From positions 1 through 51,640 of the forward strand of contig NZ_JAHOEA010000030.1 of NCBI RefSeq assembly GCF_019127135.1: a stretch of 51,640 nucleotides of DNA, written 5' to 3'. This document shows positions 1,221 through 38,480 of this stretch, in pieces (position 1 is the first letter of the stretch; each line of letters begins with the position of its first letter). The notes under the pieces were generated by a model, which saw only the letters and a list, made by a program, of their open reading frames with translations, made no database searches and was not told the origin of the DNA. The position numbers were made by a program, and so were the translations under genes. Source of the stretch: Segatella copri (GTDB lineage: Bacteria > Bacteroidota > Bacteroidia > Bacteroidales > Bacteroidaceae).

Positions 1221-3689
1221 ATGAAAGTATTCAATTCTACTCTTGCTGCCATCGGTTTGGCGGCATTCGTATTCGCATCATGTAGCGACAGTAACAGTGA
1301 TCCTGCAGATGGTTCACCAGCAATCAATCCTGCAGAGATTACCAACATTACACTTAAATCACAGACTGTAGACAACAGCCGTGTAATCAATTACAAAAAC
1401 TCAACAGCCAAGGCTAGAAAGTTTTTCCTGAGCACAAGAGCTGAGGACGGAGTTACATTCCCTACTCTCAAGAAAGCTCCTGTAGAGGAAAACGCAAAGC
1501 AGCTTAACAATCCTGCCGACCTCGAAGTTGTAGGCAAGAGTTACCAGATTAGCGGTCAAAAGAGTCTGAACTTCGCAGGAAAGACTATTAACGGCGCAAC
1601 AATCTTTGTACATAGCGGTTCTACTTTCGAATACGACAACACTACCAAGATAACCAACAGTGTCATCGTATTGAATGGTAGTGCAACTTTGAAATATACC
1701 GGTACTGGAGAAATGGTACCTGCAACCAACACTGTATTCTGCACAGATGTAAGAAACAATGTTGTTGCTTCTGGCGAAATCAACATCAACGGTGAATTCT
1801 ACGCTAACTTCAAAGGTACCTCTGCTTCAACAGGTAAAGATTTGATGACAGGTCTTGGAGCTATCAAAGAAACATCTGCAGAAGATAAGAATAAGCACAT
1901 TACTCCTACCCAGAAGATTATTTTCGGTGAGAAGGCAGTAGCTTACATTAATGGTTCTATCCGTGCTACAGAGTTGAACATAAATAAGGGTGCAATTGTA
2001 TACACCACAGAAAATGTATTCGATTCTAAAGGATTTAACTTGAATGGAAGTTTGAAGGTTGATGGTTTTGTACGAGTAGGTGACTTCACTACCTTGACAA
2101 AAGACAATCGAGCAACTGCTGCTGACATGACTGTAAATGGCTACCTTGAGACAGGCGCAAACTCTGCCGTAAAGGTAACAGGTACTCTCAATGCTAATGC
2201 GGATTCTAAGATTGTTGCTAATTACATCAATGTAACAAACAATCCGAAGAACGGAAAGAACCAGGCTACAGATGATAAGGGCAATACCATTCCTGGCGAT
2301 GCTACGCTTAAATTGAATGGTAATTGCAAAATCAAATTGACCAACAAGAGCGTAATGAACGTCAACAACCTGGTTACAGACAACACTCAGGGTCAGGTTG
2401 AGTTGGCTGATGACAGTTCTATTGCTGTAATCAAGGCTGACAAGTTCGTTAACAATGGTGAAGATAGAATCCTTTCTTTCTCTACCTCAGGTACCAACGC
2501 TTGTTTCCTGTTCCAGTTCACAACCAACTATAAGGGTGAAACCAAGTTGTCTTCATTCGATGACCTGACTCTTCAGGCTACATACATCGACTACGATAAG
2601 ACAGACCAGAACCAGAAGGTTGAATACAAAGACGACAACCACGTAAGCTTCGGTTACAAGTGGACGGGAGACGCTTCTAAGCTGGTTGCAACTCAGAAAC
2701 TTGACTTGATTGCTTCTGCAGAAGATCCTAAGGACGGTGAGTCTGCAACATGTATCCAGCCTGCAAATAACAAGTTGTATGTTTCATATCATACTAACGG
2801 AAACAATAAGGTTGGTGGTAGTATCGAGGTTGCAAGCATGACAGAAGGCAGCAAGACTTTGACTATCGAACAGAGTAAGAAGGCAGCTGATATCGACTAT
2901 AACCACCTGATTATTGAAGGCGACAAGCTCTTCCTCGCAGGTAGCCAGCAGGGCAATGGTAAAGATGTAGAAGGTGGTCATTCTGTAGGTGCTTTCATGG
3001 GTGAAGTTGCTATTACAGCTTCAGGCATTAGCGACAACCTGATTCTCCATTCTGTTGATAAGAAGAGCGACAAGGTAGACGCAAACTGCGTTGCAGCATA
3101 TGGTACAGACCATGTATTGGCAACAACCCAGGGATTCTACGTAATCGATAAGGATGATAATGCTGACCTCTACCTGTCAGGCACAGTAGCCAAGCATGTT
3201 ATCAGTGAAGGCAACAAGATTTATGCATTGACAGAAACAGGCAGTTTGAACGTATACAATAGTTCTGATATGACTAATCCTGAAACAACTTACACAGTTG
3301 GCGCAGTAGCACCTAAGGGTAACAAGGCGGTAATAGCTATTGACGAACCTAATGGTGATATCTACGTCTGCAAAGGTAAGAATGGTGTTGCTAAGATTTC
3401 AGGTAATACTGTAACAGATTTCTTTACTTGCCCAACTATCTCTTCTGGAGATAAGCAAGGTCAGACTGAAGGTAATGCTAATGGTGTAGCTGTAGATGGT
3501 AAGTATGTATACATTGCATGTGGTAGCTATGGTGTTGTTGTTCTTGACAAGACAACAGGCAAGGAAGTTTGCCACCGCAAGGCATCTAACGGCAAGTCAG
3601 CTAACTACGTAGCAGTAGCCGATGGTAACATCTATGTTGCTTACGGTCAGAGCCGTATCCAGGTTTACAAGCTCACAAAGACGAACTAA
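1221..3689 (+). CDS. Surface lipoprotein, beta-helix-like plus beta-propeller-like
   Basis: The protein has 822 residues. Its N-terminal hydrophobic stretch ends in VFASC, so Cys21 is probably lipidated and the protein anchored in the outer membrane. Acidic and Ser residues follow the Cys, as in many surface-exposed Bacteroidota lipoproteins. Residues about 95-430 contain short repeated beta segments (LNGSLKVDGFVRVGDF-like) resembling a beta-helix or bactofilin-type solenoid. Residues about 505-822 carry repeated blades ending in YVYIACGSYGVVVLD and IYVAYGQSRIQVYKL, suggestive of a beta-propeller. The next gene is a full-length paralogue with the same layout. No named family was recognised and the function is unknown. 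Its position ahead of an exopolysaccharide-like locus suggests, but does not show, a surface role. Confidence 0.85.
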   Translation: MKVFNSTLAAIGLAAFVFASCSDSNSDPADGSPAINPAEITNITLKSQTVDNSRVINYKNSTAKARKFFLSTRAEDGVTFPTLKKAPVEENAKQLNNPADLEVVGKSYQISGQKSLNFAGKTINGATIFVHSGSTFEYDNTTKITNSVIVLNGSATLKYTGTGEMVPATNTVFCTDVRNNVVASGEININGEFYANFKGTSASTGKDLMTGLGAIKETSAEDKNKHITPTQKIIFGEKAVAYINGSIRATELNINKGAIVYTTENVFDSKGFNLNGSLKVDGFVRVGDFTTLTKDNRATAADMTVNGYLETGANSAVKVTGTLNANADSKIVANYINVTNNPKNGKNQATDDKGNTIPGDATLKLNGNCKIKLTNKSVMNVNNLVTDNTQGQVELADDSSIAVIKADKFVNNGEDRILSFSTSGTNACFLFQFTTNYKGETKLSSFDDLTLQATYIDYDKTDQNQKVEYKDDNHVSFGYKWTGDASKLVATQKLDLIASAEDPKDGESATCIQPANNKLYVSYHTNGNNKVGGSIEVASMTEGSKTLTIEQSKKAADIDYNHLIIEGDKLFLAGSQQGNGKDVEGGHSVGAFMGEVAITASGISDNLILHSVDKKSDKVDANCVAAYGTDHVLATTQGFYVIDKDDNADLYLSGTVAKHVISEGNKIYALTETGSLNVYNSSDMTNPETTYTVGAVAPKGNKAVIAIDEPNGDIYVCKGKNGVAKISGNTVTDFFTCPTISSGDKQGQTEGNANGVAVDGKYVYIACGSYGVVVLDKTTGKEVCHRKASNGKSANYVAVADGNIYVAYGQSRIQVYKLTKTN

Positions 3690-3710
3690 GTTATAAATAA
3701 AATCTCTCTT

Positions 3711-3740
3711 GTTCTCCCTCACTCTATCGTGAGGGAGAAC
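3711..3740 (+). terminator. Strong hairpin after the first lipoprotein
   Basis: A perfect 12-bp stem (GTTCTCCCTCAC with its complement, loop TCTATC) lies just after the stop. The following T-tract is weak, so it could be a terminator or a 3' stabilising hairpin. Confidence 0.7.
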
Positions 3741-3832
3741 AAACCTTATAAAAGCTAAATTAACTAGCTATTAAACAATTATAAGGTATGCGTAAAAAGT
3801 GACTAAAGTATTAACGAATAATATAGAATAAC

Positions 3833-6331
3833 ATGAAAGCTATAAATATAAAGCTTGCTACTTTTAGTTTCGCAGCTATGCTCCTCGCTTCTTGTAATGA
3901 TAGCAATAATAATGAAGTAACTAATCCTTCACCATTAGTTAACACTAAGATTGTCGGTAGCGAAGTAGCATCTAGCACAGATGCTCAAGAATTGGCCAGT
4001 AGAGTTTTCAACTATAAAAATTCTGTTTCTACAACCAAAACAAGAGCATTTGACACAAATACAATAAAGGATATCCTTGAAATGCCTAAAGCTCCAACAA
4101 AAGCAGAGATTGAAGCAGACGCTAAAGATATCACAGCTAAAACAAGTGATGATTTAAGTAATGGAAAATGGTATCTTCCTGAGAACAAGTCCTTCGAAAT
4201 AGCTGGTAATTTGAATTTGAACAACACTACAATATATGTAGAAAAAGGAGCTCACCTTACTTGGTCTAACGGTCCATATACACAAACCGCTAAAGTAGTT
4301 GTATTGGAAGGTGGAGAATTCGACACGAGTCTTGATAACATTAACCAAATGACAGAAATTGTCTGCTATGGTTCATTCAAATTCAAAGGCTCAACCTTGT
4401 TAGTCAATAAACCTTTATACATAAAAGGAGATTTTGATTTAACAGGAAAGACATTTAATGTACAGGGAAAATGTTATATTGGTGGAAACTTAACTACTAC
4501 AAATTTCAGCTGTAACTATCCTTACTTAAACGTTAAAGGCAACATGACTGTTAAGGAAAATGATTATCTTAGCATTCCTGGTGGCGTAATCAATGTAGAC
4601 AAGACAATAAACATTGGAGGAAGCATCAATATAAACAATAGTGCTGTAGTAAATAGCGGTTGTGCTATCAAGAATGATGGCGGAGAATTAAATATTAACT
4701 CTGGCAGTACACTTTACTTAAAATACATAAAGTGCAACAAGATTATAGAAAGTTCTGGAGCCAATATCAGACTTGCCAACCAAAGCTATATTGAATGTGA
4801 TGTTTTCGAAAACAACAATTGTGATAATTATGACTGGAAAAATACTCAAACTAATGTAAGTACATTAGAGGGTGGTGATACAGAAGCAAATCCTGCAGTT
4901 GCTGTTATCAAAGCAAAAAAGTTTGCATTCAGCAATGGTACAGCAATAGACAACACGACTGAAAACAAAAAGTATAATTGCTTTATGTTTAGAACACCTG
5001 GTGATTATGCAAAAATTGTCCTTGATGGTAAGTTCTACAAAAAGGATGATTTAACAACTGAGATTGAACCATACTTCCCAGGCGCACGTATTTATTGGGC
5101 AACAGACAAGGACAACACATCGGATGTGACCATTAATGCAACAGAATGTAATGGTGGCAAGGGCTGGACTCCAACGAATCCTGACCCAGAACCGAAAAAG
5201 CCAATCGTTCCTATCAGCGTAATAGAGCCAGACCACACACACAACATATCAGCTACATGTGTACAGCCATATAGCGATAAGATGTATATGTCTTACCACA
5301 CACGTGGAAAGGATCTCGGTTCTTGTGTTGAAGTATTCCAACCGGTAGATGCGAATCGTCAAGTAAAACTTTTGCAGTATGTTTACGACAAGGATGGCTA
5401 CTTGGACTGGAATCACTTGATGGTATATCACAAGGGTGATAAAAAGCAAGTATATGTAGTGGGCAATCATTACAAAAAAGCTGGTACACTCGGATTTATC
5501 GACATTGCCAAAGGTGGATTACTCAACACAGATTCCAAGACAATCGTTACAGAAGACGGTTCAGAAAAGACCATTCAGCCTTTCCAGATTCTCCCGCTGA
5601 ACGCAAAAGAGAAAGCTACGGATGAAAACTGTATTGTTTATGATGACAAAAGGAACAGATTCATCGTTATGACAACTAAGGGATACGTTACTTACGACCC
5701 TGAAACTTTCAACGAACTAGAAAAGGTTAATAAGGTTGGCAAAGCAAAGCATGTTGCCATTGGTGATGGTAAGATTGTCACATTAGTATTTACAGAAAAA
5801 GCCCAATATAATGAGACTGACAATCCTGAAGAAGCTTCAAAAGAAGCCATCAATGCTCAGTTGGAAGTTAGAGACCAATCTGCAGAAATGGAATCTGAGC
5901 CAAAGTTGACTATCAAGACTCCAGCAGTATTGCCTCACTATGGCAAGAATGCTATAGCGGTTAAAAAGAGCAAGATATACGTTTGCCTTGGTGCAGCAGG
6001 ACTTTACTGCTACGATATGAATACAGGAGAAAATCTGGGTCACTATCAAATGCCAAGCCCTATTATTACAAATAGCAAAGATGGCAAAAACGGCAATTAC
6101 AAAGCCTACGCCAACGGATGCTTCGTTGGAGATGACGGCAAAGTATATATCGCTTATGGCTCATATGGCGTGGTAGTTTTGAAGGCTGGTACATTGGAAG
6201 CTGGTAATCCAGAGGTTCTTGCACATGTTTGCGAAGGTAAGTCTGCTAACTACATCACTGTCTACAAGGACTATATCTACGTAGCTTATGGCCAGAAACG
6301 ATTGCAGGTATACCAGCTTAAAGCTGAATAA
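3833..6331 (+). CDS. Surface lipoprotein, paralogue of the preceding gene
   Basis: The protein has 832 residues with lipobox LLASC (Cys21) and the same plan as its neighbour: a signal peptide, a Lys/Thr-rich linker, a solenoid-like region (about 115-360) and a propeller-like C-terminal half (about 473-832). Shared landmarks include SATC.QP...YMSYHT, D.NHL, DENC, KSANYI and IYVAYGQKRLQVYQL. Sequence identity is clearly higher in the C-terminal half than in the solenoid. The coding sequence looks more A-rich than the upstream copy, especially in the first 1 kb. No TAnnTTTG promoter was seen between the two genes. Function unknown; tandem duplication with divergence is the simplest reading. Confidence 0.85.
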   Translation: MKAINIKLATFSFAAMLLASCNDSNNNEVTNPSPLVNTKIVGSEVASSTDAQELASRVFNYKNSVSTTKTRAFDTNTIKDILEMPKAPTKAEIEADAKDITAKTSDDLSNGKWYLPENKSFEIAGNLNLNNTTIYVEKGAHLTWSNGPYTQTAKVVVLEGGEFDTSLDNINQMTEIVCYGSFKFKGSTLLVNKPLYIKGDFDLTGKTFNVQGKCYIGGNLTTTNFSCNYPYLNVKGNMTVKENDYLSIPGGVINVDKTINIGGSININNSAVVNSGCAIKNDGGELNINSGSTLYLKYIKCNKIIESSGANIRLANQSYIECDVFENNNCDNYDWKNTQTNVSTLEGGDTEANPAVAVIKAKKFAFSNGTAIDNTTENKKYNCFMFRTPGDYAKIVLDGKFYKKDDLTTEIEPYFPGARIYWATDKDNTSDVTINATECNGGKGWTPTNPDPEPKKPIVPISVIEPDHTHNISATCVQPYSDKMYMSYHTRGKDLGSCVEVFQPVDANRQVKLLQYVYDKDGYLDWNHLMVYHKGDKKQVYVVGNHYKKAGTLGFIDIAKGGLLNTDSKTIVTEDGSEKTIQPFQILPLNAKEKATDENCIVYDDKRNRFIVMTTKGYVTYDPETFNELEKVNKVGKAKHVAIGDGKIVTLVFTEKAQYNETDNPEEASKEAINAQLEVRDQSAEMESEPKLTIKTPAVLPHYGKNAIAVKKSKIYVCLGAAGLYCYDMNTGENLGHYQMPSPIITNSKDGKNGNYKAYANGCFVGDDGKVYIAYGSYGVVVLKAGTLEAGNPEVLAHVCEGKSANYITVYKDYIYVAYGQKRLQVYQLKAE

Positions 6332-6401
6332 AGATAACAAATGTATTATATAAAGATAAAAGACATAATACATTTAAGATACAAAGAACACTAAAGGAAT
6401 A

Positions 6402-6423
6402 CAGCTGCAAAAGTTTGCAGCTG
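6402..6423 (+). terminator. Hairpin after the second lipoprotein
   Basis: CAGCTGCAA pairs with TTGCAGCTG and is followed by a T-rich stretch (ATTCTTTGTGTTT). It probably ends the lipoprotein transcript 30 bases before the next gene. Confidence 0.6.
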
Positions 6424-6451
6424 CATTCTTTGTGTTTAAACAAAAAATAGA

Positions 6452-7855
6452 ATGAAGCGAAAAATAATACTATACTCAACTACTGTTCTGCTCCTTCTCA
6501 TGGCAGCACAAAGCGCTATGGCTCAGACGAAAGGCAAAAAGCCGAAAAGTTTCAGCCCTAAGATGCTCGTATATGAGAACCTGAAGAACAATAATGTACT
6601 GAGACACTTCAAACAGCGCTTCGCACAACTCGACACTCTCATCAAAAACCCTATATGGGTAAAAGCACCAGTCATAGAACTGGGACTCAATAAACAGCAT
6701 CACGCTGATATCAATAAGACCGACTCTCTGTTCTGGTCGAAAACTGCACATGAGCACTTAGCGCTCAACAGACACAACGGTCTGGAAGTGACCGGACAGG
6801 TTTATGCCCGACCTGACTCGTACTTCGATTCTGATGAAGACGACGCAAAAGAGGTATCAAAATATAAGATGAAGGTTCAAGCCGAACTGGGATGGAACAT
6901 CATCAACTCGAAGTTCTACCAAGGCAAGGAGAAAAGAACCAAGATTGCTCTTGCCAATGAACTCGACCGCTTGCAAATAAAAAAGCGCCAAACTGCAGAC
7001 ATCTATGAAAAGGCAGCAGATGAGCTGACCGAACAATATAATTTCTATATCGGTACTGTCATAGCACACAGACTGGACAACCTCGACATCATGAACGAAG
7101 CGTACCAGTTTATGCTGGAAAAAGACCGAATCAGCAACGACAAGATGCTGAAAGTGATGAACGATAAGCTGGAGGCTGAATACGACATCTCCGTGCTCTG
7201 TACAGACAGAGATATCACCAACAAGCCTATCTACCGCATCAAACCAACCAAAATTGTGGTAGATACAACAGCCCTCTGGAACCATCTGAACCAGGAAAGT
7301 CTGGATGCACGAATCATGATGGTGAAAGAACAGATTGCTGACAACGACAGCAAGCTGACCAACTACTTAAGCACTACCCGACTCACACCATTCGCAAGAT
7401 GGTCGAGTTACTGGCAGAGCAACAACAAGATTTCGAACAATGCCGACGTGGGCGTGAGATTCACCATTCCTATCTGGAACGAAACGCCACGCAAACGACA
7501 GGCACTGGAGACCCAGAAGGAAATCATACGCAGCAGCCGTGGTACCGATGTAAAGGAAATAAAACAGTCGGTAGGCATCCTGCTCAAGAAGATAGACAAC
7601 CTGAACAAGGCTATAGCCACCGAGGCTTTCCATATAGACCAGACCGGCAAATATATCGAAATGCGGCGGTTTGCTTACATGAACCAGAAGCAGGGATACA
7701 ACTATCTGATGCGTATGGACGAATATACGGGACTTCTGGAAAGTATGGAGCGAATGTATAAACTGATGCAGAACCGCGCCCTCGCTATCATCAATATAGA
7801 GAAAGCCGTGAGCATCTATGACAACAACAACATCTTCAAAGAAATAGAACTTTGA
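6452..7855 (+). CDS. TolC-like outer-membrane export protein
   Basis: The protein has 467 residues and a signal peptide ending at AMAQ (about residue 25). Long charged helices (about 165-240 and 370-460) and the late motif VGVRFTIPIWNETPRKRQA, followed by a helix, resemble the second repeat of TolC-type outer-membrane factors. It would form the outer-membrane duct of an envelope-spanning exporter. The next gene is an HlyD-like adaptor 18 bases downstream, the usual TolC partner, and the locus continues into a polysaccharide synthase. No ABC or RND pump is encoded nearby, which argues for polysaccharide rather than drug or protein export. The family match is moderate; the substrate is inferred. 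Confidence 0.75.
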   Translation: MKRKIILYSTTVLLLLMAAQSAMAQTKGKKPKSFSPKMLVYENLKNNNVLRHFKQRFAQLDTLIKNPIWVKAPVIELGLNKQHHADINKTDSLFWSKTAHEHLALNRHNGLEVTGQVYARPDSYFDSDEDDAKEVSKYKMKVQAELGWNIINSKFYQGKEKRTKIALANELDRLQIKKRQTADIYEKAADELTEQYNFYIGTVIAHRLDNLDIMNEAYQFMLEKDRISNDKMLKVMNDKLEAEYDISVLCTDRDITNKPIYRIKPTKIVVDTTALWNHLNQESLDARIMMVKEQIADNDSKLTNYLSTTRLTPFARWSSYWQSNNKISNNADVGVRFTIPIWNETPRKRQALETQKEIIRSSRGTDVKEIKQSVGILLKKIDNLNKAIATEAFHIDQTGKYIEMRRFAYMNQKQGYNYLMRMDEYTGLLESMERMYKLMQNRALAIINIEKAVSIYDNNNIFKEIEL

Positions 7856-7873
7856 ATGTAAGGAAACTAGAAT

Positions 7874-9055
7874 ATGAATGAATTCCAATATAATGGCACG
7901 CCACAAGAACAGGCGATGGCAGACTTGCTGAAGACGCAGAGTCACCGCCTAGCCAGACAGCAGATCATCTTTGCCCTGATCTTCCTGCTGGTTATCGTGC
8001 TTGCCGCCTACTATATTGTCACTCGTATGATATGGGCTACCTTCGACGGTTATATAACCCTCGATGAAAACCATATCAGTGCCGTTGATGACATCTATAT
8101 CCTTAAGGTGAACAAAGAAATGGGTGAAGTGGTGCATAAGGGAGATACGCTCTACTCTTATGTACTGCTAGGTAACATTGTGAACCAATACGACCCGAAC
8201 ATCCTGCCTTCTGCCGTAAAGGAGACTCACGACATGGAGGTACAGGCTAAACTCGCACAGCAGGAGATTCCTGTATTGCGCACCCGCCTTGCCGAACTGA
8301 GGAAACAGAAAGCCTCTGAAAGTTCGGACATCTACTACGGTCTTACCGACAACACCAAGCGAAATGCACTGGATGCTGAGATTGCCGAGGTAGAAGAGGA
8401 ATTGAGAAAGCAGGCTAACAAGGTGGAAATCTATGCACAGGCAAAGAACACCACCTATAACTTCATGAGCCGCAGAGGAGCCGGCAGAGCAAATGCTTCC
8501 ATGCCTTACTCCAGCACCAGCATCTACAACCCGGGACTTATACACTACTGCTGTGCACCAGCTGATGCTTACATCTCAAAAATCAATGTGAGCGACAAGA
8601 CACTGGTGTTCAAAAGCGAGGAGGTGATGGTTATCCAGCACACCGACTATGCTGACTGTCATCTGGGCGTAATCGCATACGTACCCAACGACATGGTGAA
8701 GTATATGGAAAGCCCTGACGATGCAGACATCATCATCAACAAAGACCTGGAACTGCAGGCTAAGTTGCAGATGGTAGGTCTGAGAGTAGAAGAAATACCA
8801 AAGCATCTGCAGAGCAACTTCTCGCATGATGCCAACGCAGTGGTTGCCGTCTTCACCCTGAACCCGAACCAGAGAGTTCCGGCATGGGTAATGAGCAACA
8901 GACTGCCGGTAAGAATAAGAGTGAACAAGATTAGTGCCATGCTCGATCCGAAGCCGCTGCCGATGTACACCGTCCCAGTGGGCAAGAACGAAAACGTGAA
9001 GCGAAGCAACCTGATTTCGAGCGACACCAATAATCATCAAGAACAAAAGAAATAA
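7874..9055 (+). CDS. HlyD/Alg44-like periplasmic adaptor
   Basis: The protein has 393 residues: a short cytoplasmic N-terminus, one transmembrane helix (about 30-52), then a periplasmic part. VVHKGDTLYSY resembles a half lipoyl motif of membrane-fusion proteins. A coiled coil spans about 118-195 (VLRTRLAELRKQKA and EVEEELRKQANKV). The second lipoyl/barrel part starts near HYCCAPADAYISKI. No PilZ domain is present, unlike Alg44. It probably bridges the inner-membrane synthase to the TolC-like duct. It ends 3 bases before the next gene, so the genes are tightly coupled. Confidence 0.75.
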   Translation: MNEFQYNGTPQEQAMADLLKTQSHRLARQQIIFALIFLLVIVLAAYYIVTRMIWATFDGYITLDENHISAVDDIYILKVNKEMGEVVHKGDTLYSYVLLGNIVNQYDPNILPSAVKETHDMEVQAKLAQQEIPVLRTRLAELRKQKASESSDIYYGLTDNTKRNALDAEIAEVEEELRKQANKVEIYAQAKNTTYNFMSRRGAGRANASMPYSSTSIYNPGLIHYCCAPADAYISKINVSDKTLVFKSEEVMVIQHTDYADCHLGVIAYVPNDMVKYMESPDDADIIINKDLELQAKLQMVGLRVEEIPKHLQSNFSHDANAVVAVFTLNPNQRVPAWVMSNRLPVRIRVNKISAMLDPKPLPMYTVPVGKNENVKRSNLISSDTNNHQEQKK

Positions 9056-9058
9056 AGA

Positions 9059-10678
9059 ATGATTGGACTTAGAAGAAACAAACGTGGAGACATGGTGCTC
9101 ACCATCGATAGCTTTATAGATATCGACTCGACACCGGATATCCAGCCCGACTACTTCGATTGTATATACATCAATACGAAGAGTGAGCGCGCGTTCCATG
9201 CCATACTGTATGGAGCCAGTCCAATCTTATCGTGGAAATGTAGCTACAAACCGATATTCGTCAATACGGCAGTATCAGGAAAGGAACAGATCATCGACTA
9301 TATCATCGATGCCTATGTGAGCGACATGAACAATGAAAAGGTATATGAGATTATAGACAAAATCAAGCAGGCAAGACAGAAGTATGGCGTGAAAAACGAA
9401 ACAGCACGCCCTACACAACCCAACCAGCTCTTTGCCAACATCCTGAAATACCTGCTCTCAAGAGACCAGCGAATCATAGGACACCGACTGCTGGAGAAAT
9501 CATCTTTGGGATATATCAACCCAATCTTCGAGCACTACCACAGTATGGGTCTCTTCCATCTCAACGAGATGTTCATGTTCATCGACACTATGGTGGAGTT
9601 CGGATCACTGCGCATTCACCGCTTCCTGCTCAAGGAGCACCTATGCCCTAAGTGTAACCACTCTCACCTGCTCTATACAGAGTGCTGTCCGAAGTGCGGA
9701 AGTTCGAACCTGAAGATTCAGAACATCATCCACCACTTCAGCTGCGCCAACGTATCGCCGGAAAGCAGCTATAATGTGGGCGGTATGCTCATCTGTCCGA
9801 AGTGCCACAAGAAACTGCGCCACATCGGTGTTGACTATGACAGACCAGCCGTGGTATATACCTGCAAAGACTGCGAGAATTCGTTTACCTCGCCTATCAC
9901 CAAGTCAACCTGCTGCTACTGCCAGAGCACCTTTCCGGTAAATGCCCTGGTGCCACGAGACGTAGAGGACTACGAGATAACGGAAGAAGGAATCAGAACG
10001 CTGACCAGCGGCAACATCATGTTCAACAACATGGTGAACATCTATGATAACTTCATGGAATATTATCTGCTGATGAACCGACTGCGCCGCCAGCTGATGG
10101 AAACCTACCGCAAGGATGAACTCTCGGTCATGGTAGGCAAGATATGGATTATAGATGAAAACAAGGATACCGTAAAGATAAAGGAAAGCATACAGGGCAA
10201 GCTCTGTAGAATCTTCTCCAATCACAAGGTGTCTTACAACAACAATATCTTCTACGTATCCTCTACCCTCTATGAGCAGGGAGAAACGGTGGAAGAAGCC
10301 CAGCAGAAACTGAGCAAGGAGATGTCGGTAGCCATCAGAAAGCTGGCCAACTCGATAGAACCGGACGAGATTATCTGCAGCATGCTGGAAACCAAGACGA
10401 AGACCATCGCCAACAACTATGACGAGTTCTTCAACAAACTGCAATATGTGGATATGACTCCAGACGACTACTGCCGCTACTCAGAGGAACCTCTGATGCA
10501 GGAAGAAGAGAAAGAGGTGCGGCCGCAGGAAGAGCTGCTCGATACGGAGCCGAAGGAAGATGAAAACGACAAGATACAGAAGCGCATCGTGCTCTACAAG
10601 AAACTCGTTGCCATCCTTGTCACCATCGCAGGTATACTCATAATCATGGCCCTCCTGGCACTCACCGTGCTGAGATAA
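9059..10678 (+). CDS. Multi-zinc-ribbon membrane protein, TackOD1-like
   Basis: The protein has 539 residues. The N-terminal 180 residues are of no recognised fold. Residues about 195-290 carry five Cys pairs (CPKC, CCPKC, CPKC, CKDC, CCYC), with IHHFSC and LRHIGVDYDRPAVVYTC between them. From memory this pattern resembles the TackOD1 (thaumarchaeal output domain 1) family, a predicted metal-binding signalling domain; this is not database-checked. Residues about 320-450 have the size and pattern expected of a degenerate GGDEF-like domain but no GGDEF motif. An acidic linker and one C-terminal transmembrane helix (about 515-538) follow. It lies between the adaptor and the glycosyltransferase, so a role in controlling or assembling the polysaccharide synthase is inferred. 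Confidence 0.7.
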   Translation: MIGLRRNKRGDMVLTIDSFIDIDSTPDIQPDYFDCIYINTKSERAFHAILYGASPILSWKCSYKPIFVNTAVSGKEQIIDYIIDAYVSDMNNEKVYEIIDKIKQARQKYGVKNETARPTQPNQLFANILKYLLSRDQRIIGHRLLEKSSLGYINPIFEHYHSMGLFHLNEMFMFIDTMVEFGSLRIHRFLLKEHLCPKCNHSHLLYTECCPKCGSSNLKIQNIIHHFSCANVSPESSYNVGGMLICPKCHKKLRHIGVDYDRPAVVYTCKDCENSFTSPITKSTCCYCQSTFPVNALVPRDVEDYEITEEGIRTLTSGNIMFNNMVNIYDNFMEYYLLMNRLRRQLMETYRKDELSVMVGKIWIIDENKDTVKIKESIQGKLCRIFSNHKVSYNNNIFYVSSTLYEQGETVEEAQQKLSKEMSVAIRKLANSIEPDEIICSMLETKTKTIANNYDEFFNKLQYVDMTPDDYCRYSEEPLMQEEEKEVRPQEELLDTEPKEDENDKIQKRIVLYKKLVAILVTIAGILIIMALLALTVLR

Positions 10679-10704
10679 GCCATCAAGAAGAAAGGGAAAA
10701 GCGT

Positions 10705-12021
10705 ATGTTTAGCATAGCAGAACATCTGAACGATTTCTTCGACTGGATCAGCACGCTATCGTTTACCAGTATCGTGAATACCTACTGGTTCCTCTTCTTC
10801 ATCGAGATGCCAAGATATTATATCCTGGAATATCTCGTAATCGGAAACCGACTGATGAAGAGAAACCGGTTAGAAAAAGAGAAAGAATATGCCAAATACT
10901 TCCTGTACCGCGAGAATCCGCTTATCAGCATCCTCGTACCGGGAAAAAACGAAGGCAAACATATATTCAAAATGGTGAACTCGCTGGCTGAGCAAACCTA
11001 CCGCAACTACGAAATCATCGTGGTAGACGATGGTAGCGACGACGACACCAAACTGATTTGCAACGACCTCTACCGAGCCGGGTATATCACCCACTACCTG
11101 AGGTTGGATACAAGAGGCGGTAAAGCTGCCGCCAGCAACTATGGAGCCCAGATGGCAAGAGGCAAATACATCGTATGTCTGGATGCCGACTCTTCGCTCG
11201 ACCGTGATGCGCTGGAGAAAATCCTACTCCCCTTCTACATCGATGGAATGGTGAAGGGTGTAGGCGGATGCGTGAAGGTACGCAACTACAAGGAGACCAT
11301 CTGCTCATCGCTGCAGGCTTTCGAATACCTGAAGCGAATACAGGTGGGACGTATCGTAACCAGCGAACTGGGTATCTACCACATCATTTCGGGAGCATTC
11401 GGAGCCTTCGAAAGAAAGACACTGAAGGAAGTGGGCTATTGGGACATAGGACCGGGACTGGACGGTGACCTGACACAGAAGATCCGCAAAGCCGGATATA
11501 AAGTGAAATTTGCCGAAGATGCCATCTGTATGACCAATGTTCCTACCAAATGGTACAAGCTGTATCATCAGCGCATCAGATGGTCGCGCTCGCTCGTGAG
11601 ATTCCGTCTCCGCAAGCATGCCGACATTCTGCTGCCTACCAAGAATTGGAGTATCCTTAACTGGATATCCAACATGGAGAGTGTGGTTTTCGACTGCTTC
11701 CTCAATTTCCTGTGGTTGTGGTACATCATCAAGCTCGCCATCACGTTTAACACACACATCATCGAGGTGCTGGCGCTGGGCTACTTTATCAGAGTATGCT
11801 TCTCGCAGCTTGCCTTCATCCTGGTGCTGATGGTTTCAGAAAGAAAGAGAGACGTATGGTTCCTCTACAGATATCTGCCACTGATGTCGCCTTATACAGG
11901 TTATTTCCTGCGTATCGCCCGTCTGTCGGCTCATCTGCAAGAGCTCTTCTTCCGCCGTTCTTACAAGGACGCATGGAACCCTGAGAAGACTTCGCGCTAT
12001 GCTCAGCTCGAAGGAATCTAA
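10705..12021 (+). CDS. Processive family 2 glycosyltransferase
   Basis: The protein has 438 residues with an N-terminal membrane segment (about 18-45), a GT-A catalytic domain and two to three C-terminal membrane helices. Visible motifs are ISILVPGKNEG, VVDDGSDDD, DADSS (about 160-164, the DxD-type metal site) and QRIRW (about 289), the last typical of processive synthases such as cellulose, hyaluronan, PgaC and Alg8 enzymes. The usual TED/ED before the QxxRW motif reads GLDGDLTQ here, so the catalytic acid may be this Asp. No PilZ domain is present. It is expected to polymerise a nucleotide-activated sugar at the inner membrane, with the product passing to the adaptor and duct encoded upstream. 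The sugar cannot be read from the sequence. Confidence 0.85.
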   Translation: MFSIAEHLNDFFDWISTLSFTSIVNTYWFLFFIEMPRYYILEYLVIGNRLMKRNRLEKEKEYAKYFLYRENPLISILVPGKNEGKHIFKMVNSLAEQTYRNYEIIVVDDGSDDDTKLICNDLYRAGYITHYLRLDTRGGKAAASNYGAQMARGKYIVCLDADSSLDRDALEKILLPFYIDGMVKGVGGCVKVRNYKETICSSLQAFEYLKRIQVGRIVTSELGIYHIISGAFGAFERKTLKEVGYWDIGPGLDGDLTQKIRKAGYKVKFAEDAICMTNVPTKWYKLYHQRIRWSRSLVRFRLRKHADILLPTKNWSILNWISNMESVVFDCFLNFLWLWYIIKLAITFNTHIIEVLALGYFIRVCFSQLAFILVLMVSERKRDVWFLYRYLPLMSPYTGYFLRIARLSAHLQELFFRRSYKDAWNPEKTSRYAQLEGI

Positions 12022-12108
12022 AAGACCCGGGTTACTTGCTGTAACGCAAACACAGCAGGGAGCTCCCAATAAAAGAAATAACATTATAAAACATAAACAA
12101 TATAGTAT

Positions 12109-13365
12109 ATGATAAACAAGTCTTTTGAGTTTAAGATTGGAGTAATAGGTTTGGGGTATGTAGGTACTCCACTAGCATGCTTATTCTCAAAGAAATACGA
12201 TACATGGGGATATGACATCAAAGCAGAAAAGGTAGCCAAGTTAGCCAAAAGTACAATGACAGACAACAAAATTGTATGCAAGGCATTGGAACAGGGACTG
12301 AAACTGACCAACAACATTGATGACCTGAAGAAGTGTAACGTGTATATCATCGCTGTACCAACACCGGTGAACAAATCGAACAAACCAGACATCAGCTGCG
12401 TGCGCAATGCAACTGCTGAGGTTGGCAAGATTCTGAAAGAAGGTGATATCGTGGTATACGAAAGTACCGTTTACCCAGGTCTGACAGAAGAGGTTTGTGC
12501 CCCATTACTGGCATCTACATCAGGATTGAAATTGAACCAGAGTTTCTTTGTAGGCTTCTCGCCAGAACGCATCAACCCAGGCGATACGGTTCATACCATC
12601 GAGAACATCGTGAAGGTTACCAGCGGTTCTACACCCGAAGCAGCAGCTATCATCGACAGCCTCTATGCTTCAGTACTTACTCATGGCACCTACAAGGCAA
12701 AGAGCATCAAAATAGCAGAGGCATGCAAACTGATGGAGAACTGCCAGAGAGACATACAGATAGCCTTCTTCAACGAGATGGAAAAGATTTTCGACAAGAT
12801 GAACATCAACATCGAAGACGTAACGGCGGCAGCTAGCACAAAATGGAACTTCGTGCCAGCTACTCCAGGACTCGTTGGAGGCCACTGCATCGCAGTAGAC
12901 CCATACTATCTGATCAACAAGGCACAGGAGGTAGACGTAGTACCATCGCTGCTCTCTACTGCCCGCGAAGTTAACGAGCAGATGGCGGTATGGATGGCAG
13001 GAAAGATAAAGAATGCATCTGAAAGCAGAAAGTTCAAGGCTCCAGAAACCAACGTGCTGATTCTCGGCTTCTCGTTCAAGCCTGACAGCGATGACTTGAG
13101 AAATACAAAAGTAGCCGATCTCTACATCAACCTGGTAGGTGCGGGATACAAGACTACACTCTACGATCCGCTGGTAGATACAGAAGAAGTGAAGAAAGAA
13201 TATAACATCAAGGTGACAAATGATCCTAAAGTTCTAGAAAAAGAGTATCAGATTGTAGTCATCGGTACCCATCACAAGGTGTTTGACAACATCGATATGA
13301 ACAAGATTATCACAGATAAAGGATTTATGTGCGACATCTACGGCATTCACAAGCCAAGAAGCTAG
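12109..13365 (+). CDS. Nucleotide-sugar dehydrogenase (UDP-sugar 6-dehydrogenase)
   Basis: The protein has 418 residues. The N-terminal Rossmann motif GVIGLGYVGTPLA binds NAD; YESTVYPG, FSPERINPGD and GGHCIAVDPYYL (catalytic Cys about 260) are hallmarks of the UDP-glucose/GDP-mannose dehydrogenase superfamily. Overall it resembles the WecC/TviB branch acting on UDP-N-acetylhexosamines more than UDP-glucose dehydrogenase. It would oxidise C6 of a UDP-sugar to a uronic acid and so supply an acidic precursor to the glycosyltransferase 87 bases upstream. The substrate is inferred from context and family branch. It ends in TAG, showing TAG is used as a normal stop here. Confidence 0.9.
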   Translation: MINKSFEFKIGVIGLGYVGTPLACLFSKKYDTWGYDIKAEKVAKLAKSTMTDNKIVCKALEQGLKLTNNIDDLKKCNVYIIAVPTPVNKSNKPDISCVRNATAEVGKILKEGDIVVYESTVYPGLTEEVCAPLLASTSGLKLNQSFFVGFSPERINPGDTVHTIENIVKVTSGSTPEAAAIIDSLYASVLTHGTYKAKSIKIAEACKLMENCQRDIQIAFFNEMEKIFDKMNINIEDVTAAASTKWNFVPATPGLVGGHCIAVDPYYLINKAQEVDVVPSLLSTAREVNEQMAVWMAGKIKNASESRKFKAPETNVLILGFSFKPDSDDLRNTKVADLYINLVGAGYKTTLYDPLVDTEEVKKEYNIKVTNDPKVLEKEYQIVVIGTHHKVFDNIDMNKIITDKGFMCDIYGIHKPRS

Positions 13366-13408
13366 ATCTTCAAGATCAGAAAGAACCTATATAATAAACC
13401 AGTGAAAG

Positions 13409-13792
13409 ATGGAAAAGAACAAAGTGCTAATCGTCGATGATATTCCAGAAAACATTGAAACGATTTCTGAAATGATAAAGGACTTTGACATCGACGTGAA
13501 AACTGCCAATGGCGGAAAAGAAGCCATTGAACTGATTGACTCATTCAAGCCGGACGTGATACTGCTCGACTTGATGATGCCACATGTAAATGGGTGGGAC
13601 GTAATAGACCATGTACGCTCTAAATACTCGAAAAGCGAAATGGTCATCATCGTGGTTTCCCTGTTAAACAACAAGGATAATGTGGATGAATGCTACGAGC
13701 TTGGAGTAAACGACTACATCACAAAGCCTATCATCAAAGCCCGTCTCACCAGTTCGCTAGACGCTCATCTAAGCAGTCTTGCAAGAGGCTAA
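13409..13792 (+). CDS. Single-domain response regulator (CheY-like)
   Basis: The protein has 127 residues and is a receiver domain only. The acidic pair is Asp10-Asp11, the phosphoacceptor is Asp54 in VILLDLMMP, the Ser/Thr switch is Ser84 and the conserved Lys is Lys106 in YITKP. There is no output domain, so it must act by protein contact. It is the last gene of the plus-strand series, 43 bases after the dehydrogenase, which suggests control of polysaccharide synthesis or export. No histidine kinase is encoded in the window. Its stop codon overlaps the stop of convergent pflA. Confidence 0.9.
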   Translation: MEKNKVLIVDDIPENIETISEMIKDFDIDVKTANGGKEAIELIDSFKPDVILLDLMMPHVNGWDVIDHVRSKYSKSEMVIIVVSLLNNKDNVDECYELGVNDYITKPIIKARLTSSLDAHLSSLARG

Positions 13793-13808
13793 AGTGCCTC
13801 TTGCAAGA
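13777..13808. terminator. Perfect hairpin spanning both convergent stop codons
   Basis: A 13-bp perfect stem (TCTTGCAAGAGGC with its complement, loop TAAAGT) covers the last codons of both the response regulator and pflA. There is no T-tract on either side. It is probably a bidirectional 3' end or mRNA-stabilising structure. Confidence 0.6.
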
Positions 13809-14517
13809 TTGCTTCTGCATGAGCTATACGATTACTAGTAGGAGGATTTATGCCTTCCAGCGGGTAGGCAATACCTAGTTTCTCATACTTGTAGATACCC
13901 ATCGTATGATAGGGTAAGACATCTATTTGCTCAATGTTTGAGAGTGTAGAAAGAAAATCGCGCAACTGATTGAGGTATTCATCCTTGTCGGTAATACCTG
14001 GAATCAGGACATGACGAATCCATACTGGTTTGTGTATCTCGCTTAAATAACGTGCACAATCCAGTATGTTTACATTAGAATGGCGGGTGAGTTTACGATG
14101 CTCCTCATCGTTGATATGCTTGATATCAAGAAGAACAGTATCGGTGACGGCCATCAGACACTCGAATTTATCGAAGAAAGCCCCCTCTTTTCGGAAGGGT
14201 TGCGCTGATGTATCAAGACAGGTATTGATGCCACGCTGATGGGCTTTCTCGAAAAGTTCGATGAGAAAGTCTATTTGCATCAGGGCTTCTCCGCCGCTTA
14301 CGGTGATGCCACCCTTATCTCCCCAATAACTCTTGAATCTCTCTGCCTTATCCAGCAGGTCATCGGCACTCCACTCTTCTCCTACCCCCATCTTCCAGGA
14401 ATCCGGGTTGTGGCAGAACTGGCAGCGCATGGGACAACCTTGCAGAAAGATCAAAAATCTGATGCCTGGTCCATCTACAGAACCAAAGCTCTCTATGCTG
14501 TGAACAAATCCCTTCAT
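13789..14517 (-). CDS. pflA: Pyruvate formate-lyase activating enzyme
   Basis: The protein has 242 residues and is a radical SAM enzyme. The cluster motif CPMRCQFC holds Cys28, Cys32 and Cys35; SFGSVDGPGIR before it and SGGEAL after it are typical of PFL-activating enzymes. It generates the glycyl radical on PflB under anaerobic conditions. The start ATG overlaps the stop of a 34-residue membrane peptide gene as ATGA, so translation is probably coupled. pflB lies upstream on the same strand but is separated by a terminator and a fresh promoter. Confidence 0.93.
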   Translation of the reverse strand: MKGFVHSIESFGSVDGPGIRFLIFLQGCPMRCQFCHNPDSWKMGVGEEWSADDLLDKAERFKSYWGDKGGITVSGGEALMQIDFLIELFEKAHQRGINTCLDTSAQPFRKEGAFFDKFECLMAVTDTVLLDIKHINDEEHRKLTRHSNVNILDCARYLSEIHKPVWIRHVLIPGITDKDEYLNQLRDFLSTLSNIEQIDVLPYHTMGIYKYEKLGIAYPLEGINPPTSNRIAHAEAILQEAL

Positions 14518-38334: not shown

Positions 38335-38409
38335 ACATCGCCCTGCGGTCTGAACCAACGACCTCCAGCCGATGGGTAAGACAAGGGGCTGATGCCTTCA
38401 GATAGGGAC

Positions 38410-38480
38410 AAAAAAAAATTGATTGTCTCACGACAACCAATCTTTTATTAACCTTAATAATCTAATACCATGAAAAACAC
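38410..38480 (-). ncRNA. Candidate small RNA of about 70 nt
   Basis: A complete promoter (38485-38514) faces left and is followed within about 70 bases by an intrinsic terminator with nine T. The transcript would read GTGTTTTTCATGGTATTAG early and contain GATTATTAAGGTTAATAAAAG before the terminator stem. No open frame of useful length is present. It lies between convergent chromate-transporter and DUF3256-like genes and belongs to neither. Function unknown; an independent small RNA is the simplest reading. Confidence 0.6.
38418..38441. terminator. Terminator of the small RNA, usable by both strands
   Basis: On the minus strand ATTGGTTGTC pairs with GACAATCAAT (loop GTGA, one G-U) and is followed by a run of T. 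In the plus orientation it follows the chromate transporter genes. Confidence 0.85.

What the first reader, a model, noticed from the sequence alone, without database searches (positions are those of the whole stretch)
6452..13792. Candidate undescribed synthase-dependent polysaccharide system with a TolC-type duct
Six collinear, tightly spaced genes encode a TolC-like duct, HlyD-like adaptor, zinc-ribbon membrane protein, processive GT2 synthase, UDP-sugar dehydrogenase and receiver-only regulator. Known synthase-dependent systems (alginate, cellulose, PNAG) use beta-barrel exit pores and c-di-GMP-binding PilZ domains. Neither is seen here. An alpha-barrel-type exit plus a non-PilZ control protein would be a distinct design. 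An acidic polymer is suggested by the dehydrogenase.
Basis: partly seen in the sequence, partly recalled or inferred. Interest (0 to 1): 0.8.

Follow-up and report, generated by a model that had tools for sequence, protein, structure and literature searches.

The report
TackOD1-controlled polysaccharide synthase operon, c-di-GMP-free variant
A gut bacterium carries a gene block that probably makes and exports a surface sugar polymer; it looks related to a biofilm machine of Shewanella that is switched by the messenger c-di-GMP, but here that switch appears lost and a receiver protein of the phosphorylation type may have taken its place.

Summary
The six genes are real and collinear. The 539-aa 'zinc-ribbon' protein is a TackOD1 protein (PF18551, E 7.6e-44), a domain whose function was called obscure in 2018 (PMC5847659). 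In 22 of 22 Bacteroidota loci outside one genus, and 16 of 16 Pseudomonadota plasmid loci, it lies directly upstream of a PgaC-like GT2 gene, with an HlyD-type gene near in 22 and 15. Counter-example: in 14 of 14 loci of one genus it sits with a receiver gene and no such synthase. Gammaproteobacterial relatives end in a GGDEF domain that keeps the c-di-GMP I-site (173 of 177) but not the active site; 0 of 113 nearest homologues of the window protein keep the I-site, and 0 of 27 genomes has GGDEF over cut-off. The window protein is modelled with a GGDEF fold there. The gene set matches Shewanella mxdABC; that MxdA is a TackOD1 protein is inferred, not shown. Verdict: new variant of a known kind, with a likely input swap.

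The parts
1221..3689 (+). Up1: lipoprotein-like (lipobox read from the sequence), 822 aa, weak propeller match at the C terminus; surface partner (inferred)
   Evidence: PF13360 E 3.1e-4, below cut-off; family near 17 of 22 synthase loci; 35% identical to its counterpart in G001 while the six other proteins are 95-99%
3833..6331 (+). Up2: paralogue of Up1 (26% identity), lipoprotein-like, 832 aa
   Evidence: no Pfam match up to E 1
6397..6428 (.). hairpin between Up2 and the duct gene; possible attenuator or terminator
   Evidence: pattern match only
6452..7855 (+). TolC/OEP-like outer-membrane duct protein, 467 aa
   Evidence: OEP 17.6 bits, below 22; hhalign 98.7% and 89.4% to duct proteins of other Bacteroidota TackOD1 loci, but 0.1-0.2% to the clear TolC proteins of Aeromonas and Methylocystis; L023 duct over the OEP cut-off; own AF2 model unusable, pLDDT 35.8
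7874..9055 (+). HlyD/EmrA-like periplasmic adaptor, 393 aa
   Evidence: TIGR00998 E 5.1e-5; a profile of it with 10 other adaptors, some of them clear HlyD members, matches EmrA 8zar E 1.8e-19
9059..10678 (+). TackOD1 control protein, 539 aa: N-terminal alpha/beta domain (about 1-115), TackOD1 (124-307), GGDEF-fold domain without GGDEF motif or I-site (about 325-472), C-terminal helix 502-538
10705..12021 (+). processive-type GT2 polysaccharide synthase, 438 aa
12109..13365 (+). UDP-sugar (probably UDP-HexNAc) 6-dehydrogenase, 418 aa
13409..13792 (+). stand-alone receiver (CheY-like), 127 aa; phospho-acceptor Asp in LLDLMMP and Lys in TKPI read from the sequence (motif roles recalled)

Best explanation
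The block is a synthase-dependent exopolysaccharide machine of a TackOD1-controlled kind, probably related to Shewanella Mxd. The GT2 polymerises the sugar and passes it through the inner membrane; the HlyD/EmrA-like adaptor and the OEP-like duct carry it across the envelope; the dehydrogenase supplies an acidic sugar nucleotide; the two lipoproteins act at the surface on or with the polymer. The TackOD1 protein, held to the membrane by its C-terminal helix, gates the synthase. In gammaproteobacterial relatives the gate reads c-di-GMP through a degenerate GGDEF domain whose I-site is kept; in this lineage that site is lost and the phosphorylated stand-alone receiver encoded at the end of the operon gives the signal. 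Shown by computation: gene content, synteny, domain identities, loss of the I-site, no GGDEF or PilZ over cut-off in the tested genomes. Inferred: polymer export, gating of the GT2 by TackOD1, receiver binding to TackOD1, c-di-GMP binding by the relatives, and that MxdA itself is a TackOD1 protein.
Confidence: 0.68

Rival explanations
1. The GT2 is not a polymerase: it adds one or few sugars to a lipid or to the lipoproteins, and the HlyD/TolC pair exports a small glycoconjugate.
For: Substrate and processivity cannot be read from sequence; the GT2 scores far below the PgaC equivalog cut-off (162 against 422 bits), and the next models mix polymerising and non-polymerising enzymes (XrtG-associated, MftF, NodC).
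Against: The processive-type signatures, QxxRW included, are invariant in 19 relatives; best PDB match is chondroitin synthase, E 3.8e-19 over the catalytic half only, and hyaluronan synthase is also matched; a dedicated duct and adaptor fit a polymer better (inference).
Confidence: 0.15
2. TackOD1 plus receiver is a general signalling pair, and its place in the synthase operon is only one of several uses; it controls the synthase in some lineages and something else in others.
For: Genus g197: 14 of 14 loci TackOD1+REC without this synthase; 3 of 4 halobacterial records; TackOD1 reported in thaumarchaeal pilus loci (PMC5847659, passages).
Against: In the 22 other Bacteroidota and 16 Pseudomonadota loci read, the GT2 is the direct downstream neighbour; one of four archaeal records has it one gene away.
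Confidence: 0.4
3. The TolC-like and HlyD-like proteins are an ordinary drug-efflux pair that happens to sit beside a GT2.
For: The adaptor resembles EmrA; in two Methylocystis records an MFS pump with its own adaptor and outer-membrane gene lies divergently upstream of TackOD1.
Against: HlyD in 22 of 22 and a duct gene in 21 of 22 Bacteroidota synthase loci (the last cut by its contig end), and no inner-membrane pump gene between duct and GT2 there. The Methylocystis TackOD1-GT2 run has an HlyD-type gene of its own.
Confidence: 0.03

Closest known systems
mxdABCD of Shewanella oneidensis
   Same: first gene a c-di-GMP effector that interacts with the receiver-only CheY3; second a membrane GT2; third an efflux-pump homologue (PMC3691769, PMC7666153, passages); the order TackOD1-GT2-HlyD in Plesiomonas and Photobacterium, and TackOD1-GT2-TolC-HlyD in Aeromonas, resembles it
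   Different: here duct and adaptor precede TackOD1; a dehydrogenase, two lipoproteins and a receiver gene are added; the I-site is lost and no GGDEF over cut-off exists in the tested genomes; that MxdA carries TackOD1 is inferred
XcsAB-TolC cellulose system of cyanobacteria (Maeda 2018, seen only through review PMC12430437, passages)
   Same: GT2 + HlyD-like + TolC-type exit proposed
   Different: PilZ on the synthase; in T. vulcanus the genes are scattered; no TackOD1 in the passages read
BgsBA mixed-linkage glucan system of rhizobia (PMC9495663, passages)
   Same: GT2 with an HlyD-like partner in one operon
   Different: c-di-GMP binds the synthase C terminus itself; no TackOD1 or TolC gene in the passages read
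Pga/Ica PNAG synthases
   Same: GT2 family; PgaC is the best NCBIfam model
   Different: below the equivalog cut-off; no other Pga-type partner among the eight proteins scanned
TackOD1 output domain (PF18551; PMC5847659, passages)
   Same: the domain itself, often with receiver domains
   Different: its function is called obscure there; no polysaccharide link in the passages read

Membership tests
TackOD1 (PF18551) | score over the curated cut-off | tested here: met
   149.9 bits against 32
TackOD1 (PF18551) | conserved cysteine set | tested here: met
   C199, C210, C213, C229, C246, C249, C269, C272, C285, C288 invariant and C196 nearly so in 70 sequences
Mxd-type system | GT2 directly after the effector gene | tested here: met
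   26 bp downstream
Mxd-type system | efflux-type (HlyD) adaptor in the operon | tested here: met
   weak alone, supported by family profile
Mxd-type system | effector binds c-di-GMP (I-site on a degenerate GGDEF, binding itself not testable here) | tested here: not met
   RxxD absent in the window protein and in 0 of 113 rows present; 0 of 27 genomes with GGDEF over cut-off
Mxd-type system | effector homologous to MxdA | tested here: inconclusive
   Shewanella TackOD1 proteins of about 462 aa found, none named MxdA or SO4180
Mxd-type system | interaction with a CheY-like receiver | not testable with these tools
   only a receiver gene in the operon
processive GT2 synthase | D, DxD, D, QxxRW | tested here: met
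PNAG synthase PgaC/IcaA | NCBIfam TIGR03937 cut-off | tested here: not met
   162 against 422 bits
OEP/TolC family | PF02321 cut-off | tested here: inconclusive
   17.6 against 22 bits; 6 of 13 duct proteins of TackOD1 loci match at E 0.01; window-type profile finds no TolC in the PDB
HlyD/MFP adaptor | PF13437 over cut-off | tested here: inconclusive
   19.1 against 22.2 bits; mixed family profile matches EmrA E 1.8e-19
UDP-GlcNAc 6-dehydrogenase TviB | NF011729 cut-off | tested here: not met
   384 against 592 bits; general NDP-sugar dehydrogenase model met
PilZ-controlled synthase (cellulose, alginate) | PilZ domain | tested here: not met
   none in the six proteins; 0 of 23 related genomes
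GGDEF fold (residues 325-472) | structural match of the modelled domain | tested here: met
GGDEF fold (residues 325-472) | sequence-profile match | tested here: inconclusive
   window-type end against GGDEF-bearing groups 0.4-3.7%; REC-fused Bacteroidota ends against gammaproteobacterial GGDEF 95.2%

The most novel reading that the evidence does not exclude
TackOD1 is the hub of a separate, cross-domain class of polysaccharide synthases: a metal-binding coupler between exchangeable inputs (c-di-GMP through a degenerate GGDEF, fused receiver, stand-alone receiver) and a GT2, exported by HlyD/TolC-type ducts in diderms and without them in haloarchaea. In Bacteroidota the c-di-GMP input died, leaving a fossil GGDEF fold, and phosphotransfer took over.
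Probability: 0.5. Interest if true: 0.78.

Novelty: new variant of a known kind. Interest (0 to 1): 0.64.

Why it matters
TackOD1 was named in 2018 without a function; a fixed place beside a GT2 in the synthase loci of two bacterial phyla gives it a direct, testable one. If the input swap is right, it shows how a c-di-GMP-controlled biofilm machine can be kept in bacteria that seem to have no c-di-GMP cyclases, and it explains why a lone receiver gene belongs to the operon. It also offers a handle on how Segatella/Prevotella-type gut bacteria build a surface polymer.

Tried and rejected
Drug efflux as the function of the duct pair: rejected on synteny. N-terminal domain of the TackOD1 protein as a degenerate receiver: hhalign 0.2% against 18 receivers, so not claimed; it does match the separate 106-119-aa protein encoded before REC-TackOD1 in six loci (75.6%). 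TolC fold by AF2 with two sequences: pLDDT 35.8, not used. The PDB match MtrE for duct profile A3 (E 2.5e-5) was discounted because A3 held clear OEP members; the window-type-only profile A6 has no such match, and the window-type ducts do not reach the clear TolC proteins of Aeromonas and Methylocystis by hhalign (0.1-0.2%, no better than 12 decoys at 0.0-0.5%). The EmrA match of the adaptor profile A4 has the same weakness: A4 held annotated HlyD members. Sequence proof of the GGDEF-like end in the window protein failed. In Roseibium, Palleronia and Methylocystis the adaptor is annotated 'hypothetical'; I call it HlyD-type from my own iterated profile, which was partly trained on such loci. 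Distance-matrix correlations TackOD1/GT2 r 0.76 (30 loci) and TackOD1/HlyD 0.863 (29), with 0 of 2000 permutations reaching them, are expected also from species relatedness and are not counted as evidence. Weak TackOD1 matches below the cut-off: seven (no hit to the window proteins in their 3-kb loci), one not looked at. Fold families not listed for other parts of the model were not tested, since one domain fills the list. Literature searches; one paper holds 'TackOD1'. Papers not held: PMC3067315 and Gambari 2019.

Full report
What is there. The six genes lie at the stated places on the + strand with gaps of 18, 3, 26, 87 and 43 bp. The last one overlaps by 4 bp the convergent gene 13789-14517, which I read as a pyruvate formate-lyase activase (recalled, not scanned). 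The nearest held genome G001 (L035) and the Segatella copri record L002 carry the same block with the same genes downstream; the six proteins are 95-99% and 79-89% identical. Two large lipoprotein-like genes (Up1, Up2) come first and belong to the block: the family is near 17 of 22 Bacteroidota synthase loci.

Neighbourhood across Bacteroidota. PF18551 is over cut-off in 12 of 395 genomes of the phylum sample (13 loci) and in 24 of 251 of the family sample (23 further loci). All 36 loci were read in stretches of 4 to 20 kb. Fourteen belong to one genus (g197). In the other 22 the GT2 follows TackOD1 directly in 22 (21 by ORF and profile, L101 by tblastn up to its contig end), HlyD is present in 22, the duct gene in 21 (L034 by tblastn; L101 cut off), the dehydrogenase in 12, an Up-type gene in 17. 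In six a receiver is fused to TackOD1 (by profile; Pfam checked for L024 and L028). In L025 a receiver, an Hpt protein and a LytTR regulator precede the operon, and in L023 a PAS histidine kinase; in L094 a SpoIIE phosphatase and a HATPase protein follow it.

The counter-example. In 14 of 14 g197 loci TackOD1 is followed by a stand-alone receiver (10 by ORF, 4 by tblastn) and no GT2 or duct gene is found. Three of these loci have a 174-aa HlyD-profile hit about 5 kb away on the opposite strand (L084, L085, L090). The best GT2 matches elsewhere in these genomes are weak (E 8.4e-17, against 8.1e-207 in the same-genus genome G580), and a search with the adaptor of L094 finds nothing in them. So the TackOD1-receiver pair is conserved even without the synthase. 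This supports the receiver as partner and limits the claim that TackOD1 always serves this GT2.

Outside Bacteroidota. A tblastn of the protein finds 19 plasmid records; all 19 were read, and one second locus in Photobacterium. Of 16 Pseudomonadota loci in 15 records, 16 have the GT2 directly downstream and 15 an HlyD-type gene (L043 is cut at the record end; it is the same plasmid as L044); Aeromonas has a TolC gene between them, and Methylocystis has one two genes after the adaptor. Several records are near-duplicates, so the independent number is smaller. Of four halobacterial records one has TackOD1-DUF2334-GT2, and its GT2 fits the same profile (E 3.4e-108); three have none in the stretch read.

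Input swap. Plesiomonas and Aeromonas proteins are TackOD1-GGDEF. Among 177 proteins of at least 400 aa from two searches (those with names are nearly all Gammaproteobacteria), 173 keep RxxD at the I-site register, which one search aligns to real cyclases, while one has a GG[DE][EF] motif anywhere. That is what a c-di-GMP receptor without cyclase activity looks like (family knowledge, recalled). Among the window protein and its 112 nearest homologues of at least 440 aa (most unnamed; those with names are Bacteroidaceae) none has RxxD there; two have a chance match elsewhere in the segment, one of them in an out-of-frame row. In six REC-fused Bacteroidota proteins one keeps RxxD (L033) and the D stays in all six. 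GGDEF is over cut-off in 0 of 27 genomes, 23 of which are among the 35 TackOD1-bearing ones; the single weak match lies in a TackOD1 protein's own end. PilZ is over cut-off in 0 of the same 23.

Kinship with Mxd. S. oneidensis mxdABCD encodes MxdA (c-di-GMP effector that interacts with the receiver-only CheY3), MxdB (GT2), MxdC (efflux-pump homologue) and MxdD; mxdA and mxdB mutants are deficient in aggregation (PMC7666153: abstract, passages, Discussion; PMC3691769: abstract and passages; PMC11395469: passages). Shewanella TackOD1 proteins of about 462 aa exist and the three or more in alignment A2 carry RxxD without GGDEF. I infer that they are MxdA; no SO4180 sequence was available. On this reading the Segatella system works like Mxd with the c-di-GMP input lost; it is not filed as an Mxd member because that feature was tested and not met.

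Polymer and exit. The GT2 has the processive-type signatures. The dehydrogenase is closest to UDP-HexNAc enzymes (TviB model 384 bits, below cut-off; PDB ManNAcA dehydrogenase and Cap5O), so an acidic amino-sugar polymer is possible but unproven; in 10 of 22 loci no such gene was detected in the stretch read. Exit by a TolC-type duct is likely at the family level and weak for this protein alone. TolC/HlyD-type export of a GT2 product has been proposed before for cyanobacterial cellulose (PMC12430437, passages) and an HlyD-like partner for rhizobial glucan (PMC9495663, passages), so the exit route is not new in kind.

Judgement. Ordinary parts: GT2, dehydrogenase, adaptor, duct. New: a fixed tie of an obscure domain to these synthases over two phyla, and a coherent case for loss of c-di-GMP control with a receiver left in charge. 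I found no paper that states either, within an open-access library only.

Noticed in passing
1221-6331: The two lipoprotein-like neighbours are only 32-35% identical to their counterparts in G001, while the adjacent six proteins are 95-99% identical; long DNA similarity begins at about 6239. Looks like cassette exchange or strong diversifying selection at the surface end.
   Followed up: partly
6397-6428: Hairpin between Up2 and the duct gene, possible attenuator separating the surface proteins from the machine (pattern match only).
   Followed up: no
38409-38480: FopS small RNA (RF04319), minus strand.
   Followed up: no
L024, L028, L029, L030, L032, L033: A separate 106-119-aa protein before REC-TackOD1 matches the N-terminal domain of the window TackOD1 protein (75.6%): the domain seems to have been split off where a receiver was fused.
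   Followed up: partly
L079-L090, L092, L093: TackOD1 plus receiver pair without this synthase in 14 of 14 loci of one genus.
   Followed up: yes
L094:9772-12108: Cache-HAMP-SpoIIE phosphatase and HATPase protein shortly after the operon: a possible partner-switch input.
   Followed up: no
L095:7553-8862: The GT2 is in two ORFs in this locus; not examined further.
   Followed up: no
L047, L054: In Methylocystis an MFS pump set lies divergently upstream of the TackOD1-GT2 run.
   Followed up: no
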